DNA of 35,675 nucleotides. Source: Opitutaceae bacterium (GTDB taxonomy: Bacteria > Verrucomicrobiota > Verrucomicrobiia > Opitutales > Opitutaceae). Each line of letters begins with the position of its first letter. Position 1 is the stretch's first letter. Position numbers and translations under genes: made by a program. Positions 11,688 through 32,891 of the stretch are shown one piece after another. The stretch lies in assembly GCA_028280945.1 (NCBI GenBank), contig JANQKV010000041.1, positions 1 through 35,675 on the forward strand, read 5' to 3'. The notes below the pieces were generated by a model. The model did not search any database and was not told the origin of the DNA. It saw only the letters and a program-made list of their open reading frames with translations.

Positions 11688-11706
11688 GTGGGGGTGAGGA
11701 TGTTGG

Positions 11707-12261: not shown

Positions 12262-12285
12262 GGGAGGCGGAGGCGACTCACCGAA

Positions 12286-12888: not shown

Positions 12889-12920
12889 AGGATGGATAGA
12901 TTACGGGGTTAAAGGGGGAA

Positions 12921-13628: not shown

Positions 13629-13630
13629 GG

Positions 13631-15614: not shown

Positions 15615-16303
15615 TCGCCAGGATGCGGTTTGCGCAGGGTGAGGTAGTAGTAGAACAGGGTGGAACTGGAGCGCTCCACCTCGAACCGGCCCTCCCAGAG
15701 GTGTTGTCGCACCTGGGGCCATTGCGGCAGGTAGTCCTTCAGGAAACACCACTCCTCCTGGATGATGCTGCCGAAATACTTGAGGTAGGGCGTGACGTGC
15801 AGCCGGGGTTGCCGGAAAAACCAGAACGCCATCTTGATTTGGGGCGAACCCGGGAAATCGAGCACCGAAAGGCGCCCGCCCGGCTTCAACAGGCGCCAGC
15901 TCTCATCCATGAACTTGGCCACGTTTTCCGCACTGGCCAGGTGATGCAGGCTGTGGATGCAGGTGAGCCAGTCGTAGGACTCGTCGGGCAGGTCCGTCTT
16001 GGTGACATCCCCCTGGTGGATGGTGAAGCGGGAATCGGCGGCCAGTTCCTCGGAGATGGTCAGGTCAATGCCCGTGAGGTTCTTGAAGTCGAGGCTGTGG
16101 AACACGTCCAGGGCCTCACCATGACCGCAGCAGAGATCGAGGAGTTGGATGTCGCGGGGAGCATCCATCAGGCCGAGGCGCTCAAGCTTCGCCGGCATTT
16201 CCTTTCGCCGCCGCTTCCGCTCGTCCTCATTGGCATAGGTTTCCAGCCAGGCGTCGGATTCGTTGCGGTCCTCCGAGGTCGCGTTGATCTTGAAGTCACT
16301 CAT
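15611..16303 (-). CDS. Class I SAM-dependent methyltransferase
   Basis: A 230-residue protein. Motif I LLDLCCGHGEAL is at 54-65, a GIDLT acidic turn follows, and motif IV is YDWLTCIHSLHHL. LLKPGGRLSVLDFPG is the typical post-IV strand of UbiE/Methyltransf_11 members. Both ends overlap neighbours by ATGA (15611-15614 with the SDR, 16300-16303 with the GT2 gene), so the trio GT2, methyltransferase, SDR is translationally coupled. Sugar O-methylation on a nucleotide sugar or glycan is the likely job. A respiratory-quinone role is not supported by context. Confidence 0.84.
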   Translation of the reverse strand: MSDFKINATSEDRNESDAWLETYANEDERKRRRKEMPAKLERLGLMDAPRDIQLLDLCCGHGEALDVFHSLDFKNLTGIDLTISEELAADSRFTIHQGDVTKTDLPDESYDWLTCIHSLHHLASAENVAKFMDESWRLLKPGGRLSVLDFPGSPQIKMAFWFFRQPRLHVTPYLKYFGSIIQEEWCFLKDYLPQWPQVRQHLWEGRFEVERSSSTLFYYYLTLRKPHPGE

Positions 16304-17110: not shown

Positions 17111-17830
17111 TCAGACCCGCTTGTATTCCACATAGATTGCCACGCTCGAGCACTGCCAGCGGAAGAATGGCACCTTCTCTATGGTCCGGTTCCACCAGAC
17201 CAGCAGCGGCATGAGCTTGGCGGGGACCTTGAATGGGAACAGGAAGGGGAAAATCTCGAATTTGGTCAGTTCATACCCCTCGTGGCCCTCGAAGAAACTA
17301 CGCCATTTTCCGGGGGTGAATGATTGCTCGCCGGCGGCGCGGTGTCCGGGGGTGAGTTCCTTGAGTTTGCGGAAGATGCTCAGTCCGTTGGACTCGGTCA
17401 GCAGGCAACGCCCGCGGGCCGTGCGCATCATCTCTCGCGCCATGGCGCGTTGGTCCTCAACATGGTGCATGACGTCGAACTCCACGGTAACATCAAATGC
17501 CTCATCCTCGAGGGGGAGCTGCTGCGCATCCGCCTGAACCGCGTCCAAACCGATGCTCTTGAGCCAATCCACGCCTTCCTCAAAATACTCGGAGACAACG
17601 TATTTGCCAATCTGACCCTGATTTGCGGCAAGCATTGCCTTGCTCATGTCACCGTTGCCGGAGCCGATCTCAAAAAAAGAGGCCTCCTTGTCCTGGTCGA
17701 AGTGGTCATAAAAGAACTCAACGTAGCGCGGGACGATGAACACGTCGCTGATTTCCCCCACGATCTTCTTTCGCCAGGATGATTTTTGATCGTGAATTTC
17801 GGCCCAGTTTTCTTGCCTTGGTAGCTTCAT
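17111..17830 (-). CDS. Class I SAM-dependent methyltransferase (intact copy)
   Basis: A 239-residue protein. SAM motif I FFEIGSGNGDMS is at 52-63, a second acidic segment (YVVSEYFEEGVDWL) follows, and FDVMHHVEDQRAM is motif IV. A tryptophan-rich, basic C-terminal part may bind lipid or acceptor. The N-terminal half has a near-identical truncated copy 1.6 kb upstream (about 19470-19816). It lies between two GT2 genes. Methylation of a glycan or lipid-linked sugar is likely. A 102-base gap before the next gene upstream contains no open frame. Confidence 0.85.
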   Translation of the reverse strand: MKLPRQENWAEIHDQKSSWRKKIVGEISDVFIVPRYVEFFYDHFDQDKEASFFEIGSGNGDMSKAMLAANQGQIGKYVVSEYFEEGVDWLKSIGLDAVQADAQQLPLEDEAFDVTVEFDVMHHVEDQRAMAREMMRTARGRCLLTESNGLSIFRKLKELTPGHRAAGEQSFTPGKWRSFFEGHEGYELTKFEIFPFLFPFKVPAKLMPLLVWWNRTIEKVPFFRWQCSSVAIYVEYKRV

Positions 17831-19469: not shown

Positions 19470-19816
19470 CATAAAACTCGTCGGAGGAAGCATCCGCGAC
19501 TGGTAGGTTTTGGGCGTCGGCCTGAATGGCATTGAGAGCGATCGGTCAACCAATCGACCCCCTCCGGGAAATACTCGGAGACTACATAACGTCCGATTTG
19601 GTCTTGGTTGGCTGCCAGCACTGCCTTGCTCATGTCGCCGTTGCCCGAACCGATCTCGAAAAACGAGGCCTCCTGATCGCGGCCAAAGTGGCCGTAGAAG
19701 AATTCAATGTAGCGAGGAACGATGAACACATCGCTGATCTCGCCTACGATCTTCTTTCGCCAGGACGACTCCTGATCGTGGATTTCGGCCCAGTTTTTGT
19801 TCGATGGGTTATTCAA
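19470..19816 (-). pseudogene. Truncated, frameshifted duplicate of the 17.1-17.8 kb methyltransferase
   Basis: The start is a TTG at 19816 that overlaps the stop of the membrane gene upstream (TTGA). The first 90 or so residues match the intact methyltransferase at 17111-17830 almost residue for residue, including EIGSGNGDMSKA and YVVSEYF. After the EGVDWL segment the frame breaks. The expected continuation (ALNAIQADAQNLP) is in another frame, so a small indel occurred. Homology to the intact copy then stops near 19474, before motif IV. It cannot make a functional enzyme. The likely histories are a partial duplication, or an older related allele left after recombination. Confidence 0.8.
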
Positions 19817-21573
19817 ATTCTTACTGAGAGCTTGATAGTGCCACGTTTGATTTGACGTGGTTCACGGAGAATGACCGGAACGTTTTCGCCGGATTTATTG
19901 GCTGGAACAGAATGTGAAAATGACTCAATTTCCGCGTTCTCTTTCAAGATCATGTATTCCAACCAAACATTTGGTGCACCGTTTGGTGGGCGTTCGACCA
20001 CGATGGTGTTGTCGACTGTGCAGTTGGCACTTCTCAGACGGCCGAAATAGGCAAAAGCGGGCAGGTCGTCCGTTTGGTAGGTTGGACTGGCGAGCAGAAA
20101 CCAATTTCTAGTGGGAAATGAAGGAAGGCTGACATTCCGGGGGTGAAACGGAATAGACATTCCTAGATGGAGTTGGGAGAATTCTGAGTTTTCCCAGCGT
20201 TGCAGATAATCTCTTTCGACGACGATGTCGCTAATCTCTCCAGAACGATCCCATTGCTGAAGGGCCAATGCGGTGACATCCCGTGGTGTCTTCCAAAACG
20301 CATTCCGGATTTGAACCACAGCATTGTTTCGTGAGACATTACCTGCAAACAATATTACGATGGCCACGCAGCCCAACCCATAAAGAGCCAGTAGAGATTT
20401 ATTGCGTTGTCCTCGCAGCCAATTGAGCAGAGTGCCGAGAATCAGGGCCAAGCCGAAAGTTTGCACGTAAAGTTGCAAGTAGCCCATTCCCCATTTTAAC
20501 TCTAGTTGGTATTTTACGGTGATCGCGGTGAGGACAGGGGGAACTGTAATAAAGCAGACCCCTCCCACCACTGGGACCATCCAACGATGAAATGGTAGTT
20601 TCTGTATTTTTGTGCTCGCGGAGCGAGTCAACCAAATCAGAAGGCAAACAACGGCCACCCCTCCGGTGATCGCGCTAGGTGTGATGGTCGGTATTTGCCG
20701 CCAGACGGAAGGCGTCATTGAATCGCCGACGAATACTGGGATCGTGCTAGCAAGCTGGACCAAGTAAGCATGTAGGATGCTCTGCAAAGATGATACCTGA
20801 ATTGTGGTTCCTGTATTCAAGCTAGATTGTTTCAGTAGCAAATTGAGCACGCCGAACAATATACCCCAACCGATCGGAATCAGCAGTAATGTCCATTTAC
20901 GTTTGAAAGGCGTGGAAGAGAGCAAGTTCTGTCCTAATGTTGCTACCGCTACGACGATGGCTGCTTCCCAAGTCAATATAGCAAGAAAGACCCAAGCCAA
21001 ATGTTTGATGACTAAGCGGCGCGGAAAGGTGGAGGTTTCGTTGATGTGAACCAGAAGTTGATCGTAGGATGAAATAGCTTGAACCATAAACCCCGTGAGC
21101 AGAGGTAGGTAAGCAAAGTAGCTAGTGAAAGAGTCGTGGTAGTTCTGGAACTGTGAACAACTAACAAAAATTATAAGGACCAACGATGCGGGAATATGGC
21201 TTGAAAAGAGCCGAGTTAATCCCGACTGAATTAGAAGAAAAGAAAGGAGGTAGATGATCCCGAAATAGATGCGGTAGGCAACCAGATCGTTGCCAATTTC
21301 AAGCAAGATCGGAAGTAATCCGAACGAAAAAACTAAAGGAAATCGGCCTTGAAATTTTAGGAAATTCACGAAATTTTCGTAGCAATAATCCCACAGGGTG
21401 TGCCCCCATATTTCTAGTTTCTGGTTCCATAGTGAAATTACGGAGTCATCATCATAAAAACCGGCCGACCAGATTTGAGCGATCATCAGAGTCGCGAGCA
21501 GCACGGAAGGGCCATATATATCAAGAATGTTCGATCGGGCTGCTGTTACGGTGGATCGGTTGGTGTGGTGCAT
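19813..21573 (-). CDS. Large polytopic membrane protein, probably GT-C or polymerase-like
   Basis: I chose the ATG at 21573 (586 residues). A TTG at 21624 would add 17 residues of unclear sequence. It has about ten hydrophobic segments, starting with PSVLLATLMIAQIW, followed by an acidic loop (SAGFYDDDSV) like the first periplasmic loop of GT-C enzymes. A hydrophilic C-terminal domain of about 150 residues ends the protein. No family name is recognised with certainty. Among glycan genes it could be a GT-C glycosyltransferase that uses polyprenyl-phosphate sugars from the DPM1-like neighbours, or a modification enzyme. AT-rich codon use suggests an origin different from the flanking 11-17 kb and 24-31 kb genes. 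Confidence 0.65.
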   Translation of the reverse strand: MHHTNRSTVTAARSNILDIYGPSVLLATLMIAQIWSAGFYDDDSVISLWNQKLEIWGHTLWDYCYENFVNFLKFQGRFPLVFSFGLLPILLEIGNDLVAYRIYFGIIYLLSFLLIQSGLTRLFSSHIPASLVLIIFVSCSQFQNYHDSFTSYFAYLPLLTGFMVQAISSYDQLLVHINETSTFPRRLVIKHLAWVFLAILTWEAAIVVAVATLGQNLLSSTPFKRKWTLLLIPIGWGILFGVLNLLLKQSSLNTGTTIQVSSLQSILHAYLVQLASTIPVFVGDSMTPSVWRQIPTITPSAITGGVAVVCLLIWLTRSASTKIQKLPFHRWMVPVVGGVCFITVPPVLTAITVKYQLELKWGMGYLQLYVQTFGLALILGTLLNWLRGQRNKSLLALYGLGCVAIVILFAGNVSRNNAVVQIRNAFWKTPRDVTALALQQWDRSGEISDIVVERDYLQRWENSEFSQLHLGMSIPFHPRNVSLPSFPTRNWFLLASPTYQTDDLPAFAYFGRLRSANCTVDNTIVVERPPNGAPNVWLEYMILKENAEIESFSHSVPANKSGENVPVILREPRQIKRGTIKLSVRI

Positions 21574-21728
21574 TGATTTGAGTAAGCTGATCGGCCGAAA
21601 AAAGTCGGTCTTGGTCGTGGTCAAGTGGAGATGAAAAGGTTTCTCAAGGTAAACTGGAGCGAAACTATGTCGTTCAAATCGTGCATGAATCTGATCAGGT
21701 CTGAGATTGTCAGGTGCTGACGTAGTAA

Positions 21729-23678
21729 TTAATCAGAATCGACCGTTATTCGCAAACCCAGCTTCCGAGGGTCATTCGGAGGTAAGTGAGGTGGGCTTGA
21801 TTCAATGACGATACGGTCAGATTCTTGACTGATTCCAATTTTGATTGTCCGACGCTCGTGCGCTTGCAGCTCAGTTTGATGGTAGAAGTGGTCGGCTTTA
21901 ATTACTATATTCCTTTTCAAAGCTGTCGGATTCCATAGCGCTAAGCTAATTTCACCGGATTCCGATGAGTATGTGCGAATCACTGCTTTTTCTGCAGTCC
22001 ATCCATCGGCAAAAAACCCGCCTTCAAATACAATGCTTGGCATTGGATTGTCTGTTTTTTGGGGTAATGATTCCCATAGACTTGATCCACTTTCTGAAGT
22101 AAAGGACTGCACCAACCTGAATTTGCTGATTTTTTCTGTTTCCAAGTCATCTCTATTGACGACTAGCAGAGCTACGGGAATATCGTTCTCTCGAATGCTA
22201 CCGATCCTTTCTGCGGAAAGTGTTGAGGCGACCGGTCTCATCTTCAATTCGTGAGAATTTAGAAACGGCAATACCCAAGAATCGCTTCCTGCAAACAGAT
22301 ACATTCGTCCGTTTGGGTTTGATTTTCGCCAACTTATAGTCGAGTGCCAAATCGGAAGTAGCGTCGGTCGCTCGACAAACTGTTGCTCCACTCTAGCCTG
22401 CAATGCCCTTGCTAGGTCTCGTGGACGTTTGTTGAACGAGAAGAGTGGATAAATGACCGTGCCATAGCCAAAGACTGCCAGTAGTATCCAATGTGATGCG
22501 GGATGGCGGGCTCGCATAGCCAGTGCAGCTGTCCAAAATACGAAAGGAAGGAGAAGGAATCGATTGTTCCAAGGCATCCAAGCCACGAGTAAACAAACCA
22601 AAGCCCAACAAACTGTTCCCGCTACGGCTAGTCGCCACCAAGCAGACTGAGGGCGCCAGCGAAATAGTGAGAACATCGCGATAGCCAAGCAAAGACTTCC
22701 GGTTGCTCCGAAATCACTGGCTGCATCCATGCCCATCCGGTTAACCGAGAATGTTTCGTCACTAAAGTCGAACCGGTAACCTACATCGCGAAGCCCCATC
22801 ATTTTGAGGGTGTTTCTGCAGGCTTCTTCCCAAAAAGGTGAGTGACCGGGGTCTTCTTGGAATGGCTCTGTTCCGGTTGCCATATTGGCGTATATATAGC
22901 GAACAGAATTGGCCGCCGCCCCTTTAAGGCCGTCGGGGTTCCGGTGTGCTTTTTGGAAGCTGAGGGAACCCAGTGGATGATCATGGCGCAAAAAAGATGC
23001 AACATATGTCTCGATACTTCCGCAAAAGAACATGCCAACAATAAGTGTTACCAGCATTACTAAAGCCCCATTGCGATTGCATCTTAGGACAATCAAGCTC
23101 AACCCAGAAGCTAGGACGGCCAACGGAAGACCACTCGTTTTTGATCCTGCTGCAAAAGCAAGGCCGAGCGCTGCAAAGGCCAAATGAATTTTTCCACGGG
23201 TTCTTTGCCAGCGCAACATGCCATGAACCCAGACTCCCACGCCGAATACGACTGCAATATCGTTTTTTGTCCCGGTGGCCTGAAATACCAGCATGGGCAT
23301 ACTGAGGAATCCGAGCACGGTGAGCCACGCTATACATTTGCCGCGCAATTCGTTGACCCACACCCACGCAATGATGCAAATCCCCATAAAGCATAGGAAA
23401 CTTGGCAACGCGTATCCCCAGCGAAGGGACAACAGTGGCAGATGGATGGCGTCAAAAGTCCATGGGAAGACGAGTTGACGCTCCGTGGTCCAATAAGGGT
23501 TGTCCCAAAGTCCTCCCCAAACGGTTAAGGGCAATCGTCCGAGGTTGTAGACGTGCGCATCCCAGATCGTAACCGGGGCCAGTAGTGCCATTGAAGCCCA
23601 ATAGCAAAAAACAAAAATACACAACCACTTCGCAGTCTGTGCAACAACGTCGGCGCTCTTGGACTCGGTAGCGTTCAT
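21729..23678 (-). CDS. Membrane glycosyltransferase, GT-C-like
   Basis: A 649-residue protein. An N-terminal hydrophobic helix is followed by a loop with TIWDAHVYNLGRLP (37-50), where Asp-40 matches the catalytic acidic residue expected in the first periplasmic loop of GT-C enzymes. Around ten more helices follow, then a soluble beta-rich C-terminal region (about 440-649). Such proteins take a sugar from polyprenyl phosphate and transfer it on the periplasmic side. The start overlaps the stop of the 46-residue membrane protein as ATGA. It is next to another large membrane protein of similar plan. The exact acceptor is unknown. Confidence 0.72.
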   Translation of the reverse strand: MNATESKSADVVAQTAKWLCIFVFCYWASMALLAPVTIWDAHVYNLGRLPLTVWGGLWDNPYWTTERQLVFPWTFDAIHLPLLSLRWGYALPSFLCFMGICIIAWVWVNELRGKCIAWLTVLGFLSMPMLVFQATGTKNDIAVVFGVGVWVHGMLRWQRTRGKIHLAFAALGLAFAAGSKTSGLPLAVLASGLSLIVLRCNRNGALVMLVTLIVGMFFCGSIETYVASFLRHDHPLGSLSFQKAHRNPDGLKGAAANSVRYIYANMATGTEPFQEDPGHSPFWEEACRNTLKMMGLRDVGYRFDFSDETFSVNRMGMDAASDFGATGSLCLAIAMFSLFRWRPQSAWWRLAVAGTVCWALVCLLVAWMPWNNRFLLLPFVFWTAALAMRARHPASHWILLAVFGYGTVIYPLFSFNKRPRDLARALQARVEQQFVERPTLLPIWHSTISWRKSNPNGRMYLFAGSDSWVLPFLNSHELKMRPVASTLSAERIGSIRENDIPVALLVVNRDDLETEKISKFRLVQSFTSESGSSLWESLPQKTDNPMPSIVFEGGFFADGWTAEKAVIRTYSSESGEISLALWNPTALKRNIVIKADHFYHQTELQAHERRTIKIGISQESDRIVIESSPPHLPPNDPRKLGLRITVDSD

Positions 23679-24656: not shown

Positions 24657-25961
24657 TCAGCTCAAGCTGGTTTCGAGGAGGAGGACAGAGAGTTTGCGAT
24701 CGTCGGGTGTATTGTGGACGTCGCGGGGGATAAAGAAACTGTTGGTGCGGATTTCGACCTGGCAGGCGGGTTGGTTGATGTCGGCCACGGTGCCTTCCAG
24801 CACGAAATCCTGTTCCTCGGTCACCTTCGCCACCGCCTGTTTCCGGCCATTGATGCGCAGTTCGCAAACCACGTCGCGGTGGTGGCCCTGGGGCAGGTGT
24901 TTCAGAGTGAAGACAAGTTTTTGGGCCCCCGCCTCCAGCGGAATGGCGCGGCGGTAAACGGGGCCGATCCACCCGTCACCGTGTTGATCGGTGAACCCGT
25001 CGTCGGTGGTGATAAGGCGTTCGAAAAACCGCAGTCGATGGGTGGCGAGCCACGCCCGCAGGAGGCGGTCCCGGGCCATGCGGGGAGAGAAGGTCAGGGT
25101 CTTGAGAAACTGGATGAACGCCCGGACACTTCTGCCTTCGCGCGCGGCATCCTCCGCCGAGCGGGCGTAGTGCCGGGCCCGCTCGTGAAGGTCCCGGTTG
25201 TGCAGCCAATAGGAGATCTCGCAGCGCCATCGGCGGGGATGCCACCACCCGCCCCAGTAGCGGCGGCTCACCTTGATGCTCATTTCGAAGATGTCAGCCT
25301 CGGTGCTCATGGCTGACTTGGATACGGCATGCATCCGGTAGGTGCTCCAGAGCTCATCCACCCGGTGGAAGCTGAACCGTCGCCCGAAACGGCAGAACAG
25401 GTCGTAATCCATGACATGGTGTTCCTTCACATTGAATCCCCCACACTTCTCCCAGACTTTCCGGTGCCAGAAGACGGAGGGTTGCGGCAGGATGTTGTAG
25501 CCCCGTTTCCAGATGGCGAGGAACTCGTAAAAGGAGGGGAATTCCGCCGGATGCTCGATTCCCACGTAGGGTGAATCTTCCCCGGTAAACAGGCACCGGC
25601 CAAACACGACGTATTTCCCCTGGGAGGGATCCATCTCCCGGGCCACACTCTGCAGGCATCCCGGGTAGAGCGTGTCGTCGGAGTTCAGGAAGCCGAGAAC
25701 CTCGCCCTTGGCCCGCTTGAACCCCCGGTTCAGCGCGTCGGCCTGCCCCTCGTCCTTTTCCACGAAAAGATGGAAGATCTGCGGGTGTTTCTCGGCGAAT
25801 TCCCGGGCGATCTCCGCGGCACCGTCGGTGGATCCCCCGTCTTGAATGATGACCTCCAGGTTCGGGTAATCCTGATCCACCAGGCTTTGCAGGGTTTCCG
25901 CGATGAAGCGGCCCTGGTTGAAGGAGGGAACGATGATGGAGATGGCGGGTGGCTTGTTCAT
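24657..25961 (-). CDS. GT2 glycosyltransferase with C-terminal beta-rich domain
   Basis: A 434-residue protein. The GT-A catalytic part covers about 6-230: SIIVPSFNQG (8-17), QDGGSTDG (40-47), EGQADALNRG (71-80) and NSDD (93-96) for the metal. A helical linker follows, then a beta-rich C-terminal domain from about 329. That domain contains DGWIGPVYRR and ends with a DDRKLSVLLLE segment, a pattern seen in accessory domains of glycan transferases and probably glycan-binding. The start overlaps the double-GT4 stop as ATGA (25958-25961), so it is translated with the putative polymerase. Confidence 0.85.
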   Translation of the reverse strand: MNKPPAISIIVPSFNQGRFIAETLQSLVDQDYPNLEVIIQDGGSTDGAAEIAREFAEKHPQIFHLFVEKDEGQADALNRGFKRAKGEVLGFLNSDDTLYPGCLQSVAREMDPSQGKYVVFGRCLFTGEDSPYVGIEHPAEFPSFYEFLAIWKRGYNILPQPSVFWHRKVWEKCGGFNVKEHHVMDYDLFCRFGRRFSFHRVDELWSTYRMHAVSKSAMSTEADIFEMSIKVSRRYWGGWWHPRRWRCEISYWLHNRDLHERARHYARSAEDAAREGRSVRAFIQFLKTLTFSPRMARDRLLRAWLATHRLRFFERLITTDDGFTDQHGDGWIGPVYRRAIPLEAGAQKLVFTLKHLPQGHHRDVVCELRINGRKQAVAKVTEEQDFVLEGTVADINQPACQVEIRTNSFFIPRDVHNTPDDRKLSVLLLETSLS

Positions 25962-28423
25962 CCGTATACCGCGTCAAATACACGACGGTAGAGGGAGAGG
26001 GTTTTGATTGCGGTCATGCGAGCCGAAAAGATATTCCGGCGCCGAAACGCGGCGCTGATCAGTTCCTCCCGGCGCTCCGGATCGTTGATGCAACGCAGCA
26101 GGCTGGCCCCGATTTCGTGAACGTTGTGGGGATCAAACACATCGGCGGCGTCGCCCGCCACTTCCGGGAGCGACGTGCCCGCGGAGCAGGCCACGGGTTT
26201 TCCGGCAATGATCGCCTCGGCGACGGGCATGCCAAATCCCTCGAACAGGGACGGGAAGACCAGGAGTTCGCAGCCGTGGAACAAGGCCTTCATTTCCAGC
26301 GGCGAACGGTAGCCCAGGTGACGCACCCGCCCCCGGAGTTCCGGCCGTTCCATCCAGGCTCGGGCCGGGTGGTCGTCCTCGAACATTCGCCCGGTGAAGA
26401 TCAATTGGAGGTTTTTCGGCAGGTGGGGCAGAATCAGGGCGAAGGCCTCCACCAGCTTGGCGTGGTTCTTGTGGGGCCAGCCGTGGGCGGGGAAGAACAG
26501 GAACGGGCCCGAGATCCCCATCTTTTCCAGCAGCCGATTGCGCCGGCCGGTGCTGAGTGGCTTCCAGACGTTGCGGCTGGGGATGTTCCAGATGGTGGTG
26601 ATCTTCTCCAGCGGTATGCCGTAGTTCTCATGCAGGCATTGTTGGGTGAATTCGGAAATGGCGACCACATGGACGGCGCGATTGGCGGAATCCCGATAGA
26701 GCTTGTCCCTTTCCTTGAATTCCTCCTCGCCGAAAAACTGGGGTAGCGCGAGGTGCTGCAGGTCGTGCACCGTCACGATCTGGGGAAACTTGGCGAGGTC
26801 CGGGTGCACGTAGCCGCAGGTGGAATGCACCAGGTCGAAATCCAACTCGCGGTAGGTGCGAAGGGTGCGCATCTCCGGGGTGAGGACCGGTTGGCGCCCC
26901 ACGGATTCGGCCAGACGGTTGGTGAGTCCGGCAAGGGACCGTTCCGCATCCCGCACCACCGGATCCGAATAGACCGGGTTGAGCTTGAACTTGGGGTCAA
27001 GTTTCCACTCGTGAAAGGAACTCCGGGGCACGTAGGCGCTGTAGTGGTTCGTGTGGTCCAGCTGGCTGATGGCATGAATCAGTTCATGGCTCATTTGCTC
27101 GGTCCCTCCGGACCGTCCTATTTCCATCCAGCGCAGGTCATACAGCAGGCGGAAGGGTTGCTCCCGGCGCGACCGAATCGATCGTTCACACAGGGTGGTG
27201 AACTTCTTGCCGGCGACCTCAATGGAATGCTCGTCCCGGGCCACGCCGGCCGCAGTCTCGAGGACCTTGGCCGGGGCCGGTTTTTCCAGCAGCGAGGCCA
27301 CGCGCTCGGCAAAGTCTGAGGGATCGTCCTCCAGCCAGGCGTTGCCTTGGTGGGCCGCCTCGGACCCTTCCGCGGCCATGGTGGTCATGACCACCGGGAC
27401 CCGCATGCTCCAAGCCTCGAATATTTTCTGCCGCACGCCGCCGCCGAACCTCATGGGTATCACGTAGACGTCGGCGTCCCAGAAGTAGGGTCTGATGTCC
27501 GGCACGTCCTCGTGCAGTGAGGCATTGGTGGCTTCAGCCAGCGCCGAACGGACCTCGGCAACCGGTTGCATTCCCGCCAGGACCAACCGTGCCTCCGGGC
27601 ATTGTGTGATCACCCGGGGCCAGATGTCCCGCACCAGAAACTGAATGGCATCGACATTGGGCGGGTGCCCGAGGTGGCCGGTGAAAAGCACGGTTTTTTC
27701 GCCAGATCGCCGCCAGTCCGGGGACGGGGGGGTGAAGTAGTCCTGATCCACCGGGATCGGGGCGACCACGGTGTTTGGGGGCAGCGCCAGCAGGCGGCGG
27801 GCAATTGACAGATCGGCTTCAGAAACAAAGCCCACGGCGTCGGCGTTCGCGCAGACCCGCTGCTCCTGTTGATGCACCTTCCTCAGGGTGGATGAGGGGA
27901 GTGGGGGAATGTTCCGTCTATGGTAGTCCGCACGCACATCGTGAAAATAGACGCACTTGGCCCCGAAGCGCGGCAGGTATTCCAGCCAAGGCCGGTTGGA
28001 GGTTTGAATGATTACAAAGCCCTGCCAAGACTCTGACTCCATCGCGGCGAGCAACTGGGGGGCACAATTCGACAGGACGGCAAGACGCAGGAAGGCATCG
28101 TCCGGGTCTTGTTCCAGCCCCAGGAGTCTCTCCAGCAGGGAAACGCGCCATTTGGCCGGCAGCTTCAACAGCCAGCCCTTGAGTTGACCGTCACTAACCT
28201 CTTGGATGATCAAGGGAGACGCCGGTGCACTGCGGGGCCAAAGAAAGGTGCTCCCTACCGCCTGCTCGAGATTGGCCACTCCTTCCGCCGGGTGGTGTTC
28301 ATACAACGGCGCCACCACACCCACCCGGTGAGATTGCGCCAACAGCCGCAGGTTGAAGAAATCATGGCCGTTTCTTCCCGGGAAGTAGGGGAGATCGGTG
28401 GTGAGAACTAGAAAACTGGACAT
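25958..28423 (-). CDS. Double-GT4 glycosyltransferase (two GT-B domains)
   Basis: I chose the ATG at 28423, just after the sulfotransferase stop; the longer frame to 28480 adds only basic low-complexity sequence. The 821-residue protein has two GT-B domains (about 2-416 and 423-821). The first contains VLFTGHLGHPPN and a GGGVRQKIFEAWSMRVPVV segment. The second contains FPAHGWPHKNH and FPSLFEGFGMPVAEAIIAGK, with the E-x7-E motif of retaining GT4 enzymes. Two catalytic GT4 domains in one chain of about 820 residues is the plan of E. coli WbdA, the O8/O9a polymannose polymerase. Position directly after wzm, wzt and a coiled-coil fusion supports a processive polymerase role (inference). Confidence 0.85.
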   Translation of the reverse strand: MSSFLVLTTDLPYFPGRNGHDFFNLRLLAQSHRVGVVAPLYEHHPAEGVANLEQAVGSTFLWPRSAPASPLIIQEVSDGQLKGWLLKLPAKWRVSLLERLLGLEQDPDDAFLRLAVLSNCAPQLLAAMESESWQGFVIIQTSNRPWLEYLPRFGAKCVYFHDVRADYHRRNIPPLPSSTLRKVHQQEQRVCANADAVGFVSEADLSIARRLLALPPNTVVAPIPVDQDYFTPPSPDWRRSGEKTVLFTGHLGHPPNVDAIQFLVRDIWPRVITQCPEARLVLAGMQPVAEVRSALAEATNASLHEDVPDIRPYFWDADVYVIPMRFGGGVRQKIFEAWSMRVPVVMTTMAAEGSEAAHQGNAWLEDDPSDFAERVASLLEKPAPAKVLETAAGVARDEHSIEVAGKKFTTLCERSIRSRREQPFRLLYDLRWMEIGRSGGTEQMSHELIHAISQLDHTNHYSAYVPRSSFHEWKLDPKFKLNPVYSDPVVRDAERSLAGLTNRLAESVGRQPVLTPEMRTLRTYRELDFDLVHSTCGYVHPDLAKFPQIVTVHDLQHLALPQFFGEEEFKERDKLYRDSANRAVHVVAISEFTQQCLHENYGIPLEKITTIWNIPSRNVWKPLSTGRRNRLLEKMGISGPFLFFPAHGWPHKNHAKLVEAFALILPHLPKNLQLIFTGRMFEDDHPARAWMERPELRGRVRHLGYRSPLEMKALFHGCELLVFPSLFEGFGMPVAEAIIAGKPVACSAGTSLPEVAGDAADVFDPHNVHEIGASLLRCINDPERREELISAAFRRRNIFSARMTAIKTLSLYRRVFDAVYG

Positions 28424-28433
28424 CGCTTCGCGG

Positions 28434-29885
28434 TCAGGGTGACGCTTGCTCCTCACCCTCGGCTCTCGTTTTCCAGGCATCTCGGTCCTGTTCGGTCAGC
28501 CAGACTGATTTTTTCAGCTCCTCCACTTGGGAATACAGTTGGTTCATTTTCTCAAGCTGGCCGTGGATGGTCGCCTCCAGTTCGGCCGCCTTTTTACCTT
28601 GGTTTTCAATCACGGTGCCCCGTTCATTGTAGTCACTTTCCAGCGCCGTGAAGTTCTTTTCGAGATCGGCTAATTGTGCCTCCGCCATGTTGGCCCGGTT
28701 GGCCGCCTTGTCCTTCTCCTCGCAGGCTGCCGTCAGCTCCCGCTGCATCTCCTCCAATTGCGAGCGCAATAGTTCGATCTCCCAGTCCTTGGCCTCGCCA
28801 GCCGAAGTCGAATTCCGACTGAGCTCGTCGAGTTGGGATCGCAAGAGATCAATCTCCTGGTCCTTATCCTTGCCGGCCAAGACGGAATTTTTGCTCAGAT
28901 CGTCCAACTGTGTCCGGAGGTTCCGAAGCTCCTCCTGGGCAGCGGACAATTGCCTGCGAATGGCAAAGTGGTTGTCTGCCGGGTCTTTCGGTTTGGCCTG
29001 GTCCGGCTTCGACCGCGGCAGGGTGCCGCCAATCATGCCCAAGGCTTCATCGTATTCCTCCGCGTAGCCCTGTTCGGCGAAGCAGTCCCGGCCCAGTCTT
29101 GTCAAGACCAAGGTCAATTCATCGCGGTCGAGCCCGGTTTTCCAGCGGCCAATCGAGCCGCGGTGGGCGGTTTTGTGCTGCCAAACCTTGTCGTCGCCAA
29201 ACCGGGGGGAATCCTGGTCGGCGGATGATCCTGGCGAGGCCTGATACTGTAGGGGATCACCCTTCGGAGCGGCGAGCCCCAGTTGCTCGAACAGGTGCCG
29301 CAACGAGGTGCCCCCGTCTGAAACCAGGTCCTCGTATTTGATGCGGGGGGCTTCGGGTCTCTCTCCGAAGAACCGATTAAGCTTGGTGAATGCCGTGGTG
29401 CAGTCGTGCGTGTGGGGGGAGGCCTGTTCCCCCATCTGCTCGGCTACACTGATGCCCCAGTGCGACTTGCAGGAGGTGATCACGTCTAGGGGGGATCGTC
29501 TCAACCAGATCATCCGGGCCGCGGGCCAGCGCTCGCTCAAGAACCAGGGGATATGGTAGTAACGCGGGGTCTTGTCGATCAGGCATCGGGTTCCGGACTT
29601 GGCCAGCAACTGGGAGTAGTGGCGCCGGATGGCCTCATGGACGGGTTCCGTGCCATCCTTGTCGCGGGGAAACAGCGTGACAATCGCCTCATTGGCCAGG
29701 TTCTGGTCATAGTCCGCATCCACCAGCTTTTGGTTGGGGTCCAATGCGGCGTAGGGAAGCTGGATCCACAGCTCCGACGGACAGGTGGCCTCCTCGGAAG
29801 CGGACAGCAACACACCCAGCAGCGTCGACCCGGATCGCGGCGCCGACATGATGAATATGAGATTGTCGCCCTGGGGTGTAATCAT
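28434..29885 (-). CDS. PAPS-dependent sulfotransferase fused to a coiled coil
   Basis: The ATG at 29885 overlaps the wzt stop as ATGA (29882-29885); the longer frame to 30077 adds 64 unconserved residues. The result is 483 residues. Residues 9-280 are a sulfotransferase: SAPRSGST (14-21) is the 5'-phosphosulfate-binding loop of PAPS, and LRRSPLDVITSCKSH (128-142) is the 3'-phosphate-binding segment. From about 308 to 478 there is a charged coiled coil with three tandem 25-residue units (323-397). Sulfotransferases move sulfate from PAPS to a sugar hydroxyl. In the same position E. coli O8/O9a has WbdD, a chain-terminating modifier with a coiled-coil ruler, so a terminator/ruler role is plausible. 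Confidence 0.85.
   Translation of the reverse strand: MITPQGDNLIFIMSAPRSGSTLLGVLLSASEEATCPSELWIQLPYAALDPNQKLVDADYDQNLANEAIVTLFPRDKDGTEPVHEAIRRHYSQLLAKSGTRCLIDKTPRYYHIPWFLSERWPAARMIWLRRSPLDVITSCKSHWGISVAEQMGEQASPHTHDCTTAFTKLNRFFGERPEAPRIKYEDLVSDGGTSLRHLFEQLGLAAPKGDPLQYQASPGSSADQDSPRFGDDKVWQHKTAHRGSIGRWKTGLDRDELTLVLTRLGRDCFAEQGYAEEYDEALGMIGGTLPRSKPDQAKPKDPADNHFAIRRQLSAAQEELRNLRTQLDDLSKNSVLAGKDKDQEIDLLRSQLDELSRNSTSAGEAKDWEIELLRSQLEEMQRELTAACEEKDKAANRANMAEAQLADLEKNFTALESDYNERGTVIENQGKKAAELEATIHGQLEKMNQLYSQVEELKKSVWLTEQDRDAWKTRAEGEEQASP
28695..28919 (-). repeat. Three tandem 75-bp (25-codon) units inside the coiled coil
   Basis: In the sulfotransferase fusion, residues 323-347, 348-372 and 373-397 align without gaps, each starting LRxQL and containing an Asp/Glu-Lys core. 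The first two are very similar and the third is more diverged. A period of 25 residues is not a multiple of seven, but it is compatible with a stretched coiled coil. Unit-length indels would change coil length. Confidence 0.7.
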
Positions 29886-31129
29886 GACGCCACCCTGTCC
29901 ACCTTGTGTTGGCCCTGCCATTCCACCACGTCCATGAGCCCGGCGTTGCGGAACCGGCCAATCACCGGAACCCGCAGGATGTCCAGCTTTCGGCACAGAA
30001 ACTGATCCTTCTCGGCGTGGGCACAACCGGCCGAAAAGAACAGGTGCCCGGGACTCACCGGCAGATTGAGTTGCCAAGTCACCACGATTTCGTCCCCCGA
30101 TTGGAAAGAGCCGGTGTTGCGATGCCCCAGCATCTCGGTGTTGGCGGATGTCAGCAAAACCCCGTGGACGTTGGTCACCCTCAGCCCGTAGATTGGGTGG
30201 TCCACGGCTTCGTGGAATTTGATGCGGTAACAGAAGTCGAAGGCGCTGCCACTCTCCACGCTCTCCACCTTTTCACCGTCCGGAGTTTGAATCCAGATAT
30301 CGGTAAAGGAAGCCTCGCCTGATCCGTAGGACTTGATCTCCGCCTCCACTTTCTCGCCGAATATCTTTTGCTGGTAGATGTTGCCGCAGACCTTCGGGTC
30401 ATCGATGGCAAGGACCTCGCCCTGTTCCAGCAGGACCGCCCGTTCACACAGGTTGGTGACGGTGTTGATGTCGTGGGAGACAAACAGAAACGTGCAGCCT
30501 CGCTCCCGCAACTCCTCGATCCGCCGAAAACAGCGACGCTGGAAGCCCATGTCTCCCACCGACAGGGCTTCGTCGACAATGAGAATGTCGGGCTTGACCG
30601 CGATGGTGACAGCAAATGCCAGTCGCACCATCATGCCGCTGGAATAGGTTTTCACCGGTTGGTCGAGAAATTCCCCGATGTCCGCAAACGCCGCGATGTC
30701 GTCAAACTGTGCATGGATCTCCTCCCGGCTCAACCCCAGGACTGCTGCGTTCATGAACACGTTTTCCCGTCCGGTGAATTCCGGATTGAAGCCGCTCCCC
30801 AACTCCAGCAAGGCCGCAACCCGTCCGGTTTTTGTCACGCTTCCGCTGGTGGGCTGGAGGGTGCCGGCAATCGTTTGCAGCAGGGTGGACTTGCCCGATC
30901 CGTTGCGTCCGATGATGCCCACGCTCTCCCCCTTGCGAACCGTCAGAGAAATGTCCCGCAGGGCCCAGAAATCAGTGAAGTGCGAGTCGGCGCGGCGTTG
31001 GAGTGCCTTCGAGCGCGTCAGATTGCCCAGTCCCTTCAAGACCGGGCTGATCATACGGGAGGAGGGCTCGTTCCAAATGCGGTAGACCTTGGAAAGATTG
31101 CGGACCTCGATGGCGTTTTCGTTACTCAT
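29882..31129 (-). CDS. wzt: ABC transporter ATP-binding protein with C-terminal carbohydrate-binding domain (Wzt)
   Basis: The ATG at 31129 gives 415 residues; a longer frame to 31267 adds no conserved sequence. Walker A IGRNGSGKST is at 73-82, the signature YSSGM at 162-166, Walker B ILIVDE at 182-187 and the switch His in VSHD at 218-220. Residues about 265-405 form a beta-rich domain as in Wzt proteins of the O8/O9a type, which recognise the modified non-reducing end of the finished glycan before export. It pairs with Wzm (stop 17 bases upstream) and overlaps the sulfotransferase fusion. The protein acts at the cytoplasmic face of the inner membrane. Confidence 0.92.
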   Translation of the reverse strand: MSNENAIEVRNLSKVYRIWNEPSSRMISPVLKGLGNLTRSKALQRRADSHFTDFWALRDISLTVRKGESVGIIGRNGSGKSTLLQTIAGTLQPTSGSVTKTGRVAALLELGSGFNPEFTGRENVFMNAAVLGLSREEIHAQFDDIAAFADIGEFLDQPVKTYSSGMMVRLAFAVTIAVKPDILIVDEALSVGDMGFQRRCFRRIEELRERGCTFLFVSHDINTVTNLCERAVLLEQGEVLAIDDPKVCGNIYQQKIFGEKVEAEIKSYGSGEASFTDIWIQTPDGEKVESVESGSAFDFCYRIKFHEAVDHPIYGLRVTNVHGVLLTSANTEMLGHRNTGSFQSGDEIVVTWQLNLPVSPGHLFFSAGCAHAEKDQFLCRKLDILRVPVIGRFRNAGLMDVVEWQGQHKVDRVAS

Positions 31130-31146
31130 GGGTGGCGGCAGCCGGG

Positions 31147-31959
31147 TCAAAGGACGTCCGCGAAGGCAGGTTTGACTTTGCGGAACATGAACTGTCCCAG
31201 CAGGAATACCATGGCGCTGGCGGCATAGACAAAGGCAAGGTGATTCAGATTGATCGACCGGCCCCACAGAACCGCGTCACGGCTCATCTCCACGATCAGC
31301 AGCACGGGGTTCAGCCGCATCCAAAACCAGGCCTCGGGGGGAATGCTATGGGCGGGATAGAACACGGCACTGGCAAACATCACCGCCATGGTGGCGAAGG
31401 GAATCAATTGGGTGATGTCCCGGAAAAAGACTCCGAGGGCCGACAGGATCCAGGATACTCCCAGCAGGAAAAACACCATGGGCAGCAGAATCACGATCAA
31501 CCACAGTGAATTGACGGTCAATCCAGGGCCGATCCACGCCACTCCGACAAGTAGAATGGCCAAGCTGATCAAAAAGTGGAAAAGTCCGCCCAGAACAACT
31601 GAGGCCGGCAGAACCTCCAGGGGAAACACTACTTTCTTTACGAGGTTGGGTTGGGTCACGATGACGGCGGGAGCCAGTCCACCCACCTCCCCAAACGCGT
31701 GAAAGATGGTGAGCCCCATGAAGATGCCCAGACCGTAGTCCACCTTGGTTTCATTGGGAATGATGCCGAAGCTGCCGCCAAAAATGTATCCGAAGACGAA
31801 AACATACAGGCTCAACAGCAAGAGCGGAGCGATCACCGACCAAACCAGGCCCAAGTGACTGCCTTTGTGACGCAGTTCCACGTTTCGGGTGGTGAACTGC
31901 CAAAGGAGCTCTCGGTTCGACCATAGTTTACCCAGGAGTGAATCTATCGCGCTTGCCAT
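31147..31959 (-). CDS. wzm: ABC-2 type permease of polysaccharide export (Wzm)
   Basis: I chose the ATG at 31959 (270 residues); an in-frame GTG at 31980 adds 7 residues, and neither has a strong ribosome site. About six hydrophobic helices are visible, with the LRHKGSHLGLVWSVI segment near the first one and LGVFFRDITQLIPF further on. Both are typical of ABC-2 O-antigen exporters. It forms the channel for lipid-linked glycan in the inner membrane and works with the Wzt ATPase immediately downstream. It is the first gene of the long minus-strand cluster. The IS3-family remnant starts about 110 bases upstream, so transcription may be read from this short region. Confidence 0.9.
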   Translation of the reverse strand: MASAIDSLLGKLWSNRELLWQFTTRNVELRHKGSHLGLVWSVIAPLLLLSLYVFVFGYIFGGSFGIIPNETKVDYGLGIFMGLTIFHAFGEVGGLAPAVIVTQPNLVKKVVFPLEVLPASVVLGGLFHFLISLAILLVGVAWIGPGLTVNSLWLIVILLPMVFFLLGVSWILSALGVFFRDITQLIPFATMAVMFASAVFYPAHSIPPEAWFWMRLNPVLLIVEMSRDAVLWGRSINLNHLAFVYAASAMVFLLGQFMFRKVKPAFADVL

Positions 31960-32038
31960 TGATTTTAAGTGATCAGTCACCCGTCATCGGATTCGACTCA
32001 AGCATCGATTGGTATTGGGAGTTTAAGCGGGCCGCGAT

Positions 32039-32101: not shown

Positions 32102-32891
32102 CTAATGTTTGTGGCTAAAGCGTGGAGTGTGTTTAAGGATGGTTATTGGTCGTGCGCCGCGCTTCAATGTTTTGCTGCGGAGCCTCAATGTCGAAGCATA
32201 GATGCACTTGAGCACTCATCGCGCAGACGGTCGATGAAACTCAATGTAGCCGTTTGGGGTGGTTTTGTCCGGCCGGATAAAGTTGAGCGTCACTCCGGAT
32301 CGATATGCCCAACTGTCTATCACCTTGCTGTAAAATAGCTTCGCATGTCGTTGCTAAGGTCCTCGGAACCCAGCCATTGTCGACTCTGATCAAACGGAGT
32401 ATTTTACGTTTTTCACAAAACCGATTCAAGTATTGGGCGACCTTCTCGCCACTTATGGGAGGTTTACGCCTGATCAGCAGTGCCTCGCGGGTGTGGGTAT
32501 CAATCAACGTCAGGATACAAAACCACCTGTGATCCTCAAAGCGCTCAGCCACAAGATCCATCGCCCAGAGTTGATTCCCACACACTGGTGCCTCCAGTGG
32601 CGCACGGGTTTTTGCCGGCGCTTCTTCTTGTGCTTGTGACTCAGGTCCAGCTCCTCCCCTTGGTAGAGGCGGTAAAATCCGCCTAGCGTTCACTTTCCAG
32701 CCTTCGCGTCGCAGCATGATGGTCACTACGGTATCCAGAGTGGATGCACTTGGCGGCCAGTTCCCGCAGATGACACCGCAACAGCGGTTCCGCAGGATCC
32801 GGTTTGTTCTTTTAAGTAATAGGAAGAGGAGGCCAGCGGCATTAGCCTGCACTCCTGATGGTTGCCATTTGAATAAGCCTCGATCAGCCAC
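32102..32891 (-). pseudogene. IS3-family transposase orfB remnant (DDE integrase)
   Basis: The minus-strand frame contains NQLWAMDLVAERFEDHRWF, LTLIDTHTREALLI and IRVDNG, which are the DDE integrase segments of IS3-family OrfB. After VDNG the frame shifts. The rest of the domain (LNFIRPDKTTPNGYIE, SFIDRLRDEC and an FDIEA segment) appears in other frames down to about 32102, with internal stops. It cannot yield a working transposase. Length and order match OrfB. Confidence 0.8.

What the first reader, a model, noticed from the sequence alone, without database searches (positions are those of the whole stretch)
25958..31959. wzm-wzt followed by a sulfotransferase-coiled-coil and a double GT4: candidate sulfation-based chain terminator and ruler
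Seen: wzm, wzt with a C-terminal carbohydrate-binding-type domain, a PAPS sulfotransferase fused to a coiled coil with three 25-residue units, then an 821-residue double-GT4 enzyme, with ATGA overlaps at several junctions. Known: in E. coli O8/O9a, wzm and wzt are followed by wbdD (terminal methyl/phosphate modification plus coiled-coil ruler) and wbdA (double GT4 polymerase of about 840 residues), and Wzt recognises the capped end. Inferred: here sulfation replaces the WbdD cap, the coiled coil sets chain length, and Wzt recognises a sulfated end.
Basis: partly seen in the sequence, partly recalled or inferred. Interest (0 to 1): 0.78.

Follow-up and report, generated by a model that had tools for sequence, protein, structure and literature searches.

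The report
Sulfotransferase-headed glycan chain terminator
In this bacterium's sugar-chain export operon, the slot that in close relatives holds a methyl-adding chain-capping enzyme holds a sulfate-adding enzyme instead, and the part of the exporter that should recognise the cap has changed with it, which points to sulfate as a new kind of end tag for bacterial surface sugars.

Summary
On the minus strand lie Wzm, Wzt with a cap-binding domain (CBD), a 483-aa sulfotransferase plus coiled coil, an 821-aa double GT4, a GT2 and a methyltransferase. The same six-gene order recurs in two relatives of the same family: G433 also has sulfotransferase-coil, G556 has methyltransferase-coil in that slot. 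The window coil is homologous to methyltransferase coils (against that of G623 it beats all 400 heptad-block and register shuffles). The window's Wzt-CBD matches the sulfotransferase cassette (41%), not the methyltransferase cassette (16-20%), although polymerase, GT2 and methyltransferase are closer to the latter. Head and CBD thus differ together, as expected if the head writes the cap that Wzt reads. In other bacteria a sulfotransferase-coil is fused to a GT4 or to methyltransferases. Best explanation: WbdD-like termination with sulfate as cap. Not shown: glycan, enzyme activity, chain length, physical contact. Against: the window coil lacks the amphipathic-looking tail of its relatives; one ST-MT relative keeps a methyl-type CBD; the joint change rests on one triple, and head and CBD are adjacent in DNA. 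New variant of a known kind.

The parts
31147..31980 (-). wzm, ABC-2 permease, 277 aa (GTG start; ATG at 31959 also possible)
   Evidence: Pfam PF01061 9e-24; 47% and 52% identical to Wzm of G433 and G556
29882..31129 (-). wzt, ABC ATPase with C-terminal cap-binding domain, 415 aa
   Evidence: PF00005 2e-25, PF14524 4e-23; best PDB hit 8dku, A. aeolicus WzmWzt, 4e-66
29885..30346 (-). Wzt cap-binding domain (residues 262-415 as cut for comparison); R317 aligns with the methyl-pocket Leu300 of A. aeolicus
   Evidence: AlphaFold2 pLDDT 77, Foldseek best 2r5o E 1.2e-10; 41% to G433, 16-20% to G556; R317 column
28434..29885 (-). sulfotransferase + coiled coil, 483 aa, proposed chain terminator
   Evidence: PF13469 7e-22; AlphaFold2 mean pLDDT 82
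29031..29885 (-). sulfotransferase head (residues 1-285): PRSGST loop, E38, DKTP (104-107), R130, S138
   Evidence: P16, R17, G19, E38, D104-Y109, R130, S138 invariant over 36 aligned rows (window plus 35 of the 61 loci); Foldseek best 4gbm CurM sulfotransferase 7.5e-9, then TPST2 2e-8; profile to PDB 2e-20; NCBIfam best NoeE 2e-27, far below its cut-off
28443..28982 (-). long helix / coiled coil (residues 302-481)
   Evidence: helices 302-362 and 364-481 in the model; homologous to the coil of a methyltransferase protein next to Wzt in G623
28695..28919 (-). three 25-residue units (residues 323-397), third one degenerate by eye
   Evidence: 29/50 identity at lag 25
28596..28634 (-). shared coil motif DYNERGTVIENQG (residues 418-430)
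   Evidence: motif once here, 4x in G433, 4x in G556, 2x in G623, 4x in L136; 5 distinct proteins among 4657 ORFs, copies included
25958..28423 (-). double GT4 glycosyltransferase, 821 aa, proposed polymerase
   Evidence: two GT4 stretches; 45% to G433, 50% to G556, 33% to L136
24657..25961 (-). GT2 glycosyltransferase with a C-terminal extension, 434 aa, constant part of the cassette
   Evidence: PF00535 3e-31 over residues 8-146; 48% G433, 54% G556, 36% L136
23817..24647 (-). SAM methyltransferase, 276 aa, constant part of the cassette; its homologue is fused to the ST-coil in L136
   Evidence: PF08241 5e-9; 53% G433, 62% G556; 37% to residues 618-862 of the L136 fusion

Best explanation
The operon makes and exports a surface glycan by the polymerase-terminator route. 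The double GT4 (with GT2) extends a lipid-linked chain in the cytoplasm. The sulfotransferase at the far end of a coiled-coil rod puts sulfate from PAPS on the non-reducing end once the chain is long enough to reach it; this stops growth. The Wzt cap-binding domain recognises the sulfated end and licenses export through Wzm. Shown by sequence and model comparison: a PAPS-type sulfotransferase head, a long helix, an O9a-type cap-binding domain, the same slot filled by a methyltransferase-coil in a relative, a homologous coil under different heads, and a joint difference of head and CBD. Inferred: that sulfate is terminal, that it stops the chain, that the coil sets length, that Wzt binds sulfate.
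For: Same six-gene order in G433 with sulfotransferase-coil and in G556 with methyltransferase-coil. Identities window vs G433/G556: Wzm 47/52, Wzt NBD 60/59, Wzt CBD 41/16-20, GT4x2 45/50, GT2 48/54, MT 53/62; in 2000 column resamplings the window was closer to G556 in 94.7% (Wzm), 39.5% (NBD), 0% (CBD), 99.9% (GT4x2), 98.9% (GT2), 99.4% (MT). Among 15 hand-picked Wzts, CBDs fall into blocks, none of which mixes head types except that of G531, while NBDs stay 46-84% alike. Window coil vs the coil of the Wzt-adjacent methyltransferase protein of G623: score 178, z 9-11, above all shuffles (300+300, 200+200); seven other phylum coils and the stand-alone window coil scored inside their shuffles. 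L140 (Bradyrhizobium): Wzm-Wzt-[ST-coil-GT4] in one chain; L136: ST-coil-MT-MT in one chain, followed by homologues of the double GT4 and GT2. A Wzt with a CBD 39% like that of L140, found in G741 by its CBD alone, is followed by a sulfotransferase of another Pfam family with the start of a coil. The head's best NCBIfam match is NoeE (2e-27, 96 bits against a cut-off of 500), which I recall as a fucose sulfotransferase of Nod factors. APS kinase in the genome. A coil-bearing terminator is called a characteristic marker of this strategy in PMC11231755 (passages and half of the Discussion read).
Against: No glycan structure or activity data. The window's coil ends without the W/R/L-rich tail seen in G433, G556, G623 and, before its MT domains, L136 (by eye). 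The window and G433 coils, both under ST heads, do not beat their shuffles (109 against a maximum of 112). In G531 a sulfotransferase-methyltransferase fusion follows Wzt, yet its CBD is 43-47% identical to those of methyltransferase cassettes, so a sulfotransferase does not always go with a changed CBD. MT heads go with three unlike CBD groups and ST heads with two, so CBD type is not set by head type alone. Head and CBD are adjacent in DNA, so one exchange could move both without functional need. The joint change rests on one triple; a maximum-likelihood tree of the double GT4 does not resolve window, G433 and G556; a label permutation over the 15 loci gave 124 to 533 of 20000 depending on how G531 is labelled, but 1590 to 1916 of 20000 for the 12 family members alone. 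R317 is Leu in the ST-linked Wzts L140 and L162. The ST version is rare: a strong match (E 9.6e-53) in only one other of 252 family genomes. In A. salmonicida a sulfotransferase-domain gene lies between wzt and wbbB and the authors know of no sulfate in that O-antigen (PMC4483657, passages read).
Confidence: 0.68

Rival explanations
1. The sulfotransferase decorates residues inside the chain as it grows, and the true terminator is another enzyme, such as the sixth-gene methyltransferase.
For: Sulfotransferases in an ABC-exported capsule cluster are proposed to sulfate a repeat-unit rhamnose (Vibrio sp. KMM 8419, PMC11641403, passages read; the authors call the exact functions unknown). The sixth-gene methyltransferase is a constant neighbour and its homologue is fused to the ST-coil in L136. 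A. salmonicida has an ST-domain gene after wzt besides WbbB (PMC4483657, passages).
Against: The sixth-gene methyltransferase is present whether the head is ST or MT, so it does not explain why the Wzt CBD goes with the head. The ST occupies the slot and the coil type of the Wzt-adjacent methyltransferase-coil proteins.
Confidence: 0.18
2. Dual cap: the sulfotransferase and the sixth-gene methyltransferase both act on the terminal residue, as kinase and methyltransferase do in O9a WbdD.
For: ST-coil-MT in one chain in L136 and ST-MT in one chain directly after Wzt in G531; MT gene kept in window and G433.
Against: The same methyltransferase gene is kept in G556, whose head is already a methyltransferase, which fits a role elsewhere better. 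The MT of G531 is only weakly like it (40% over 40 residues, E 5e-4).
Confidence: 0.1
3. The sulfotransferase domain is no longer catalytic and serves only as a scaffold that holds the polymerase, or it sulfates a protein as the related tyrosylprotein sulfotransferases do.
For: TPSTs are among the closest solved structures.
Against: P16, R17, G19 of the PAPS loop, E38, DKTP and R130/S138 are kept in all 36 aligned rows, window included; the closest solved kin is the CurM/4gox type and the best NCBIfam match is NoeE; an APS kinase is present.
Confidence: 0.04

Closest known systems
E. coli O8/O9a WbdD with WbdA and Wzm/Wzt (K. pneumoniae O5/O3)
   Same: Wzm, Wzt with C-terminal cap-binding domain (best structural match 2r5o), a chain-modifying enzyme at the N-terminal end of a coil, and a separate polymerase-like protein with two GT4 modules.
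   Different: Head is a PAPS sulfotransferase, not a methyltransferase or kinase-methyltransferase; the profile of the head listed no WbdD among its PDB matches up to E 0.01; no amphipathic-looking tail in the window protein. WbdD and WbdA themselves were not aligned here.
K. pneumoniae O7 ORF6 and O12 WbbB (terminator-coil-polymerase in one chain; PMC11231755, passages)
   Same: L140 has head-coil-GT4 in one polypeptide after Wzm-Wzt, the same plan.
   Different: Caps there are methyl-phosphate (O7) and Kdo (O12); in L140 the head is a sulfotransferase.
Uncharacterised methyltransferase-coil proteins after Wzt in the same family (G556, G623, G624, G644)
   Same: Same slot after Wzt; coil homologous to the window's in G556 and G623; double GT4 homologous in G556 and G644.
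   Different: Head chemistry and Wzt CBD. Function known from Pfam labels only. G642 and G563 have a methyltransferase gene and then a coil protein; that of G642 has one kinase-like Pfam match (PF01636, E 1.6e-4, 21.9 bits, under the cut-off of 23.2) that PDB and NCBIfam searches did not back.
CurM and 4gox polyketide sulfotransferases, NoeE, tyrosylprotein sulfotransferases
   Same: Fold and sequence of the head; E38 lines up with a Glu of the TPST1 GEET motif, which I recall as the catalytic base.
   Different: No coil and no transporter context in those enzymes (recalled); NoeE match far below its family cut-off.
A. salmonicida wzt-ORF19 (sulfotransferase domain)-wbbB (PMC4483657, passages)
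   Same: A sulfotransferase-domain gene directly after wzt in an ABC-type O-antigen cluster, in print since 2015.
   Different: 216 aa; WbbB there is a homologue of the K. pneumoniae protein that carries its own terminator in O12; the authors could not assign ORF19 and knew of no sulfate.

Membership tests
Polymerase-terminator, ABC transporter-dependent glycan assembly | Wzm plus Wzt with C-terminal cap-binding domain | tested here: met
   Pfam; CBD model best match 2r5o, then 5hno and 8dky
Polymerase-terminator, ABC transporter-dependent glycan assembly | Chain-modifying enzyme at the N-terminal end of an extended coiled coil | tested here: met
   Sulfotransferase fold then helix 302-481
Polymerase-terminator, ABC transporter-dependent glycan assembly | Polymerase with several GT modules encoded beside it | tested here: met
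   Double GT4, 821 aa; activity not tested
Polymerase-terminator, ABC transporter-dependent glycan assembly | Wzt CBD specificity matched to the terminator | tested here: inconclusive
   CBD goes with head in the window/G433/G556 triple and no CBD block mixes head types except that of G531; binding not testable
Polymerase-terminator, ABC transporter-dependent glycan assembly | Coil length sets glycan length | not testable with these tools
   Coil length and motif number vary among homologues, but no glycan lengths are known
WbdD family proper | Methyltransferase or kinase-methyltransferase head | tested here: not met
   Head is Sulfotransfer_3, fold CurM/TPST
WbdD family proper | C-terminal amphipathic membrane helix and polymerase recruitment site | tested here: not met
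   By eye only: the window protein ends in a charged, Pro-terminated tail, while G433, G556 and G623 end in W/R/L-rich stretches; recruitment not testable
PAPS-dependent sulfotransferase (PF13469) | Family profile above cut-off, PAPS loop and 3'-phosphate residues | tested here: met
   79 bits against a cut-off of 27; P16, R17, G19, D104-P107, R130, S138 invariant in 36 rows; roles of these residues recalled
PAPS-dependent sulfotransferase (PF13469) | Transfers sulfate to an acceptor | not testable with these tools
   APS kinase present in the genome; no assay

The most novel reading that the evidence does not exclude
Sulfate is a further class of export-licensing cap, next to methyl, methyl-phosphate and Kdo. 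The cap is swapped as one genetic module: the 3' part of wzt (cap reader) and the 5' part of the next gene (cap writer) lie side by side and are exchanged together onto a conserved chassis of transporter, ruler coil and polymerase, so that a lineage can change its end tag in one step.
Probability: 0.45. Interest if true: 0.85.

Novelty: new variant of a known kind. Interest (0 to 1): 0.7.

Why it matters
How an exporter knows that a sugar chain is finished is understood for methyl, methyl-phosphate and Kdo caps in a few bacteria. That makes a direct test possible: cassettes with alike polymerases but different writer/reader pairs (window and G433 against G556). It would also give a defined, end-specific sulfated bacterial glycan and a bacterial carbohydrate sulfotransferase with known context.

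Tried and rejected
The first genome-contig scan with the whole ST protein found no confirmed relative; the second, with the two-sequence ST-head alignment, gave 61 loci. ST among order genomes: 13 of 177 match, the 12 others weakly (E 6e-20 to 9e-4, 24-40% identity over part of the head, open frames 267-405 aa); among family genomes 9 of 252. Considered and rejected: that coil similarity is generic (seven control coils scored inside their shuffles; reversed ORFs gave 0 motif matches; the motif was derived from the five proteins, so its count shows specificity, not discovery). Considered and weakened: R317 as a sulfate signature; it is Arg in window and G433 and in one other (L076) among about 87 distinct Wzts aligned, but Leu in L140/L162, and 2r5o has a hydrophobic residue there in a weak alignment (E 0.02). 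Kinase label for the coil protein of G642: one sub-threshold Pfam match, not backed by PDB, NCBIfam or the G563 homologue. Coil kinship of window to L140 (z 1.5-2.4) and to the stand-alone window coil at 6011-6790 (z 0.6-1.3) was not supported. A tree of the double GT4 did not resolve the triple. Of the phylum Wzt_C places listed (a capped list) I fetched 80 neighbourhoods, several cut by contig ends; with a profile from this ST family only L061 had an ST as next gene and L060 a weak one as second; other ST subfamilies, such as that of G741, would be missed by that profile. Literature: listings of searches showed no report of a sulfotransferase terminator; 'sulfotransferase' with 'WbdD' occurs in 0 papers of the held library; most subscription journals are not held, nor is a review that I wanted.
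Full report
What is there. The window is the whole of contig C71 of a 5.44 Mb genome. G433, placed in the same family by the genome search, has the contig that the named record Opitutaceae bacterium IP29b_bin.87 shows, so the window is probably Opitutaceae. The finding lies on the minus strand. Wzm (31980-31147), Wzt (31129-29882), a sulfotransferase fused to a coil (29885-28434, 483 aa), a double GT4 (28423-25958, 821 aa), a GT2 (25961-24657) and a methyltransferase (24647-23817) follow each other with at most 17 bases between them; two of the five junctions overlap as ATGA. The 25-residue repeat is real (29 of 50 at lag 25). The genome has one Wzt_C match, an APS kinase for PAPS and further Sulfotransfer_3 places on three other contigs.

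The parts. The head is a PAPS-type sulfotransferase: Sulfotransfer_3 at 7e-22; a profile of window and G433 heads finds 4gox (a polyketide synthase sulfotransferase domain) at 2e-20, CurM sulfotransferase at 4e-20 and TPSTs from 6e-6. The best NCBIfam match is NoeE at 2e-27, 96 bits against a cut-off of 500; I recall NoeE as a carbohydrate sulfotransferase. AlphaFold2 gives a head with most ten-residue blocks at pLDDT 83-98 and some at 57-78, and helices 302-362 and 364-481 at 61-90; Foldseek finds CurM sulfotransferase and TPST2 first. In 36 aligned rows (window and 35 of the 61 loci) P16, R17, G19, E38, D104-Y109, R130 and S138 are invariant. The Wzt C-terminal domain models at mean pLDDT 77 and its best solved match is 2r5o, the C-terminal domain of a Wzt (E. 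coli O9a as I recall), then the Kdo-cap domain 5hno and the A. aeolicus methyl-cap domain 8dky.

The same cassette with another head. A relative in the same family, G433, has the identical gene order Wzm-Wzt-[ST-coil, 679 aa]-GT4x2-GT2-MT. A second, G556, has Wzm-Wzt-[methyltransferase-coil]-GT4x2-GT2-MT. Three more of 252 family genomes have a full-length double GT4 of 40-41% identity; it lies before wzt there, and after Wzt come a methyltransferase-coil (G644) or a methyltransferase gene followed by a coil protein (G642, G563; the two coil proteins are 52% identical). The coil protein of G642 has one kinase-like Pfam match just under the cut-off, not backed by other searches, so I do not count it as a phosphate terminator. 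On this evidence the sulfotransferase sits where methyltransferases sit in its kin. It is rare: with the ST as query, G433 is the only strong match besides the window in 252 family genomes.

The coil is shared between heads. The window coil scores 178 against the coil of a Wzt-adjacent methyltransferase protein of G623, above every heptad-block and register shuffle, z 9-11; it also exceeds its 400 shuffles against G556 (111 to 106) and L136 (104 to 92). Seven other coils from phylum Wzt neighbourhoods and the stand-alone window coil did not. Window against G433, both with ST heads, does not (109 to 112), while G433 against G556 does (216 to 133). A motif D[RY]xx[RW]xx[VI]Ixx[QI]G occurs 1, 4, 4, 2 and 4 times in window, G433, G556, G623 and L136, at steps of 63 residues in G433 and 42 in L136, and in no other of 4657 ORFs of 150 aa or more, overlapping copies included (17 records, all of these five proteins). 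I derived the motif from these proteins. The coils therefore seem to grow and shrink by units under different heads.

Writer and reader differ together. Compared with G433 and G556, the window's Wzm (47/52%), GT4x2 (45/50%), GT2 (48/54%) and MT (53/62%) are closer to G556, the NBD is a tie (60/59%), but the CBD is 41% to G433 and 16-20% to G556. Resampling columns 2000 times, the window was closer to G556 in 94.7, 99.9, 98.9 and 99.4% for Wzm, GT4x2, GT2 and MT, in 39.5% for the NBD and never for the CBD. Along Wzt the drop begins between residues 211 and 270. Since the CBD is the 3' end of wzt and the head the 5' end of the next gene, this reads as one exchanged segment. Over 15 hand-picked Wzts, CBDs fall into blocks: ST (window, G433; 41%), MT-coil (G556, G623 twice, G624; 49-65%), G642/G563 (71%), alphaproteobacterial ST (L140, L162, G741; 30-63%), a second cassette type with MT heads (G669, G713; 67%) and G644 alone, against 10-27% between blocks, while NBDs stay at 46-84%. 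G531 (ST-MT head) belongs to the second MT cassette type: 43-47% to its CBDs; it keeps a methyltransferase domain. MT heads thus go with three CBD groups and ST heads with two. A label permutation on residual CBD identity gave 124 to 533 of 20000 for all 15 loci and 1590 to 1916 of 20000 for the 12 family members; I give this little weight. A maximum-likelihood tree of the double GT4 left the triple unresolved.

Elsewhere. Among 61 loci with a related sulfotransferase in named genomes, the ST lies directly after Wzt in 5 (L135 which is G433, L140, L158, L162, L169). L140 (Bradyrhizobium iriomotense SZCCT0007) has ST, coil and GT4 in one 989-aa chain after Wzm-Wzt, the plan of K. pneumoniae O7/O12 with another head. 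L136 (a groundwater Deltaproteobacterium) has ST, coil and two methyltransferase domains in one 1185-aa chain, the first of them homologous to the window's sixth gene, followed by homologues of the double GT4 and GT2; its contig starts too late to show Wzt. A search for the L140-type CBD in 22 genomes found 2: G751, which is L162's own genome and so adds nothing, and G741 (the genome of L147, Mesorhizobium camelthorni), found here by its CBD at another place; it too is followed by a sulfotransferase, of family Sulfotransfer_1, with the start of a coil at the contig end. That is one independent case in which reader type and sulfate chemistry go together though the writer is of another Pfam family.

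What is known. PMC11231755 (passages and half of the Discussion) says that its K. pneumoniae examples all have a protein with an extended coil, a characteristic marker of the strategy, and describes methyl, methyl-phosphate and Kdo ends; 'sulf' occurs 0 times in its main text and in that of the WbdD structure paper PMC3482155 (passages). PMC9445017 (passages) shows cap reading by the Wzt CBD, with Leu300 in the methyl pocket; the aligned residue is Arg in window and G433 and in one other of about 87 Wzts, but Leu in L140/L162. PMC4483657 (passages) reports wzt-sulfotransferase-wbbB in A. salmonicida without a function. No held paper has both 'sulfotransferase' and 'WbdD'.

Judgement. It works like WbdD; it is not a WbdD by its head, and it lacks the amphipathic-looking tail of its own relatives. 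I put the sulfate-terminator reading at 0.68 (0.70 before I rechecked: the kinase label proved weak and one of two CBD hits was not independent), internal sulfation at 0.18 and a sulfate-plus-methyl end at 0.1. It is a new variant of a known kind, and what would settle it is the chemistry of one chain end.

Noticed in passing
window 10968-14614 (-): Transaldolase/FSA-like, HAD phosphatase, SIS, nucleotidyltransferase and GHMP kinase genes: together they look like a GDP-heptose pathway (recalled), so the glycan may contain heptose.
   Followed up: no
window 6011-6790 and 4026-6059 (-): A stand-alone coiled-coil protein (259 aa, ending in a WWKLGQLWRTLF tail) overlaps a GT4 gene; the pair recurs two genes after a Wzt in the congener G415 (L045; 39% and 52% identity). 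Perhaps a second coil-GT scaffold, or a tail for the tail-less sulfotransferase coil.
   Followed up: partly
L204 (G531): A second cassette type, Wzm-Wzt-MT-GT2[coil]-1217 aa-GT2 (e.g. G669, L236), has an ST-MT fusion in place of the MT in G531, with an opposite-strand ORF before the GT2.
   Followed up: partly
L258 (G642), L259 (G563): Methyltransferase gene followed by a coil protein after Wzt; in G642 a sub-threshold APH-kinase match. It could be a WbdD-like enzyme split into two genes.
   Followed up: partly
L136:302-751: A 149-aa ORF before the ST fusion begins with a HVPKCAG motif that I recall from another sulfotransferase family; possibly a second, cut sulfotransferase (not scanned).
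   Followed up: no
window 32241-32891 (-): Integrase-core (rve) transposase piece just upstream of the operon, a possible trace of how the cassette moved.
   Followed up: no
L061 10537-15932: In G433 the cassette lies beside genes that look by eye like the ATP synthase operon, unlike the window, which fits a mobile cassette.
   Followed up: no
window 1754-2506, 2533-3984, 8202-9107, 15611-16303, 17111-17830: Five further methyltransferase domains in the cluster, one fused to a GT2: a methylated glycan is possible.
   Followed up: no
window 19813-21624 and 21729-23678 (-): Two large proteins without Pfam hit but with 9 and 7 TM-like stretches; no match to the next genes after the G433 and G556 cassettes that I compared.
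   Followed up: no
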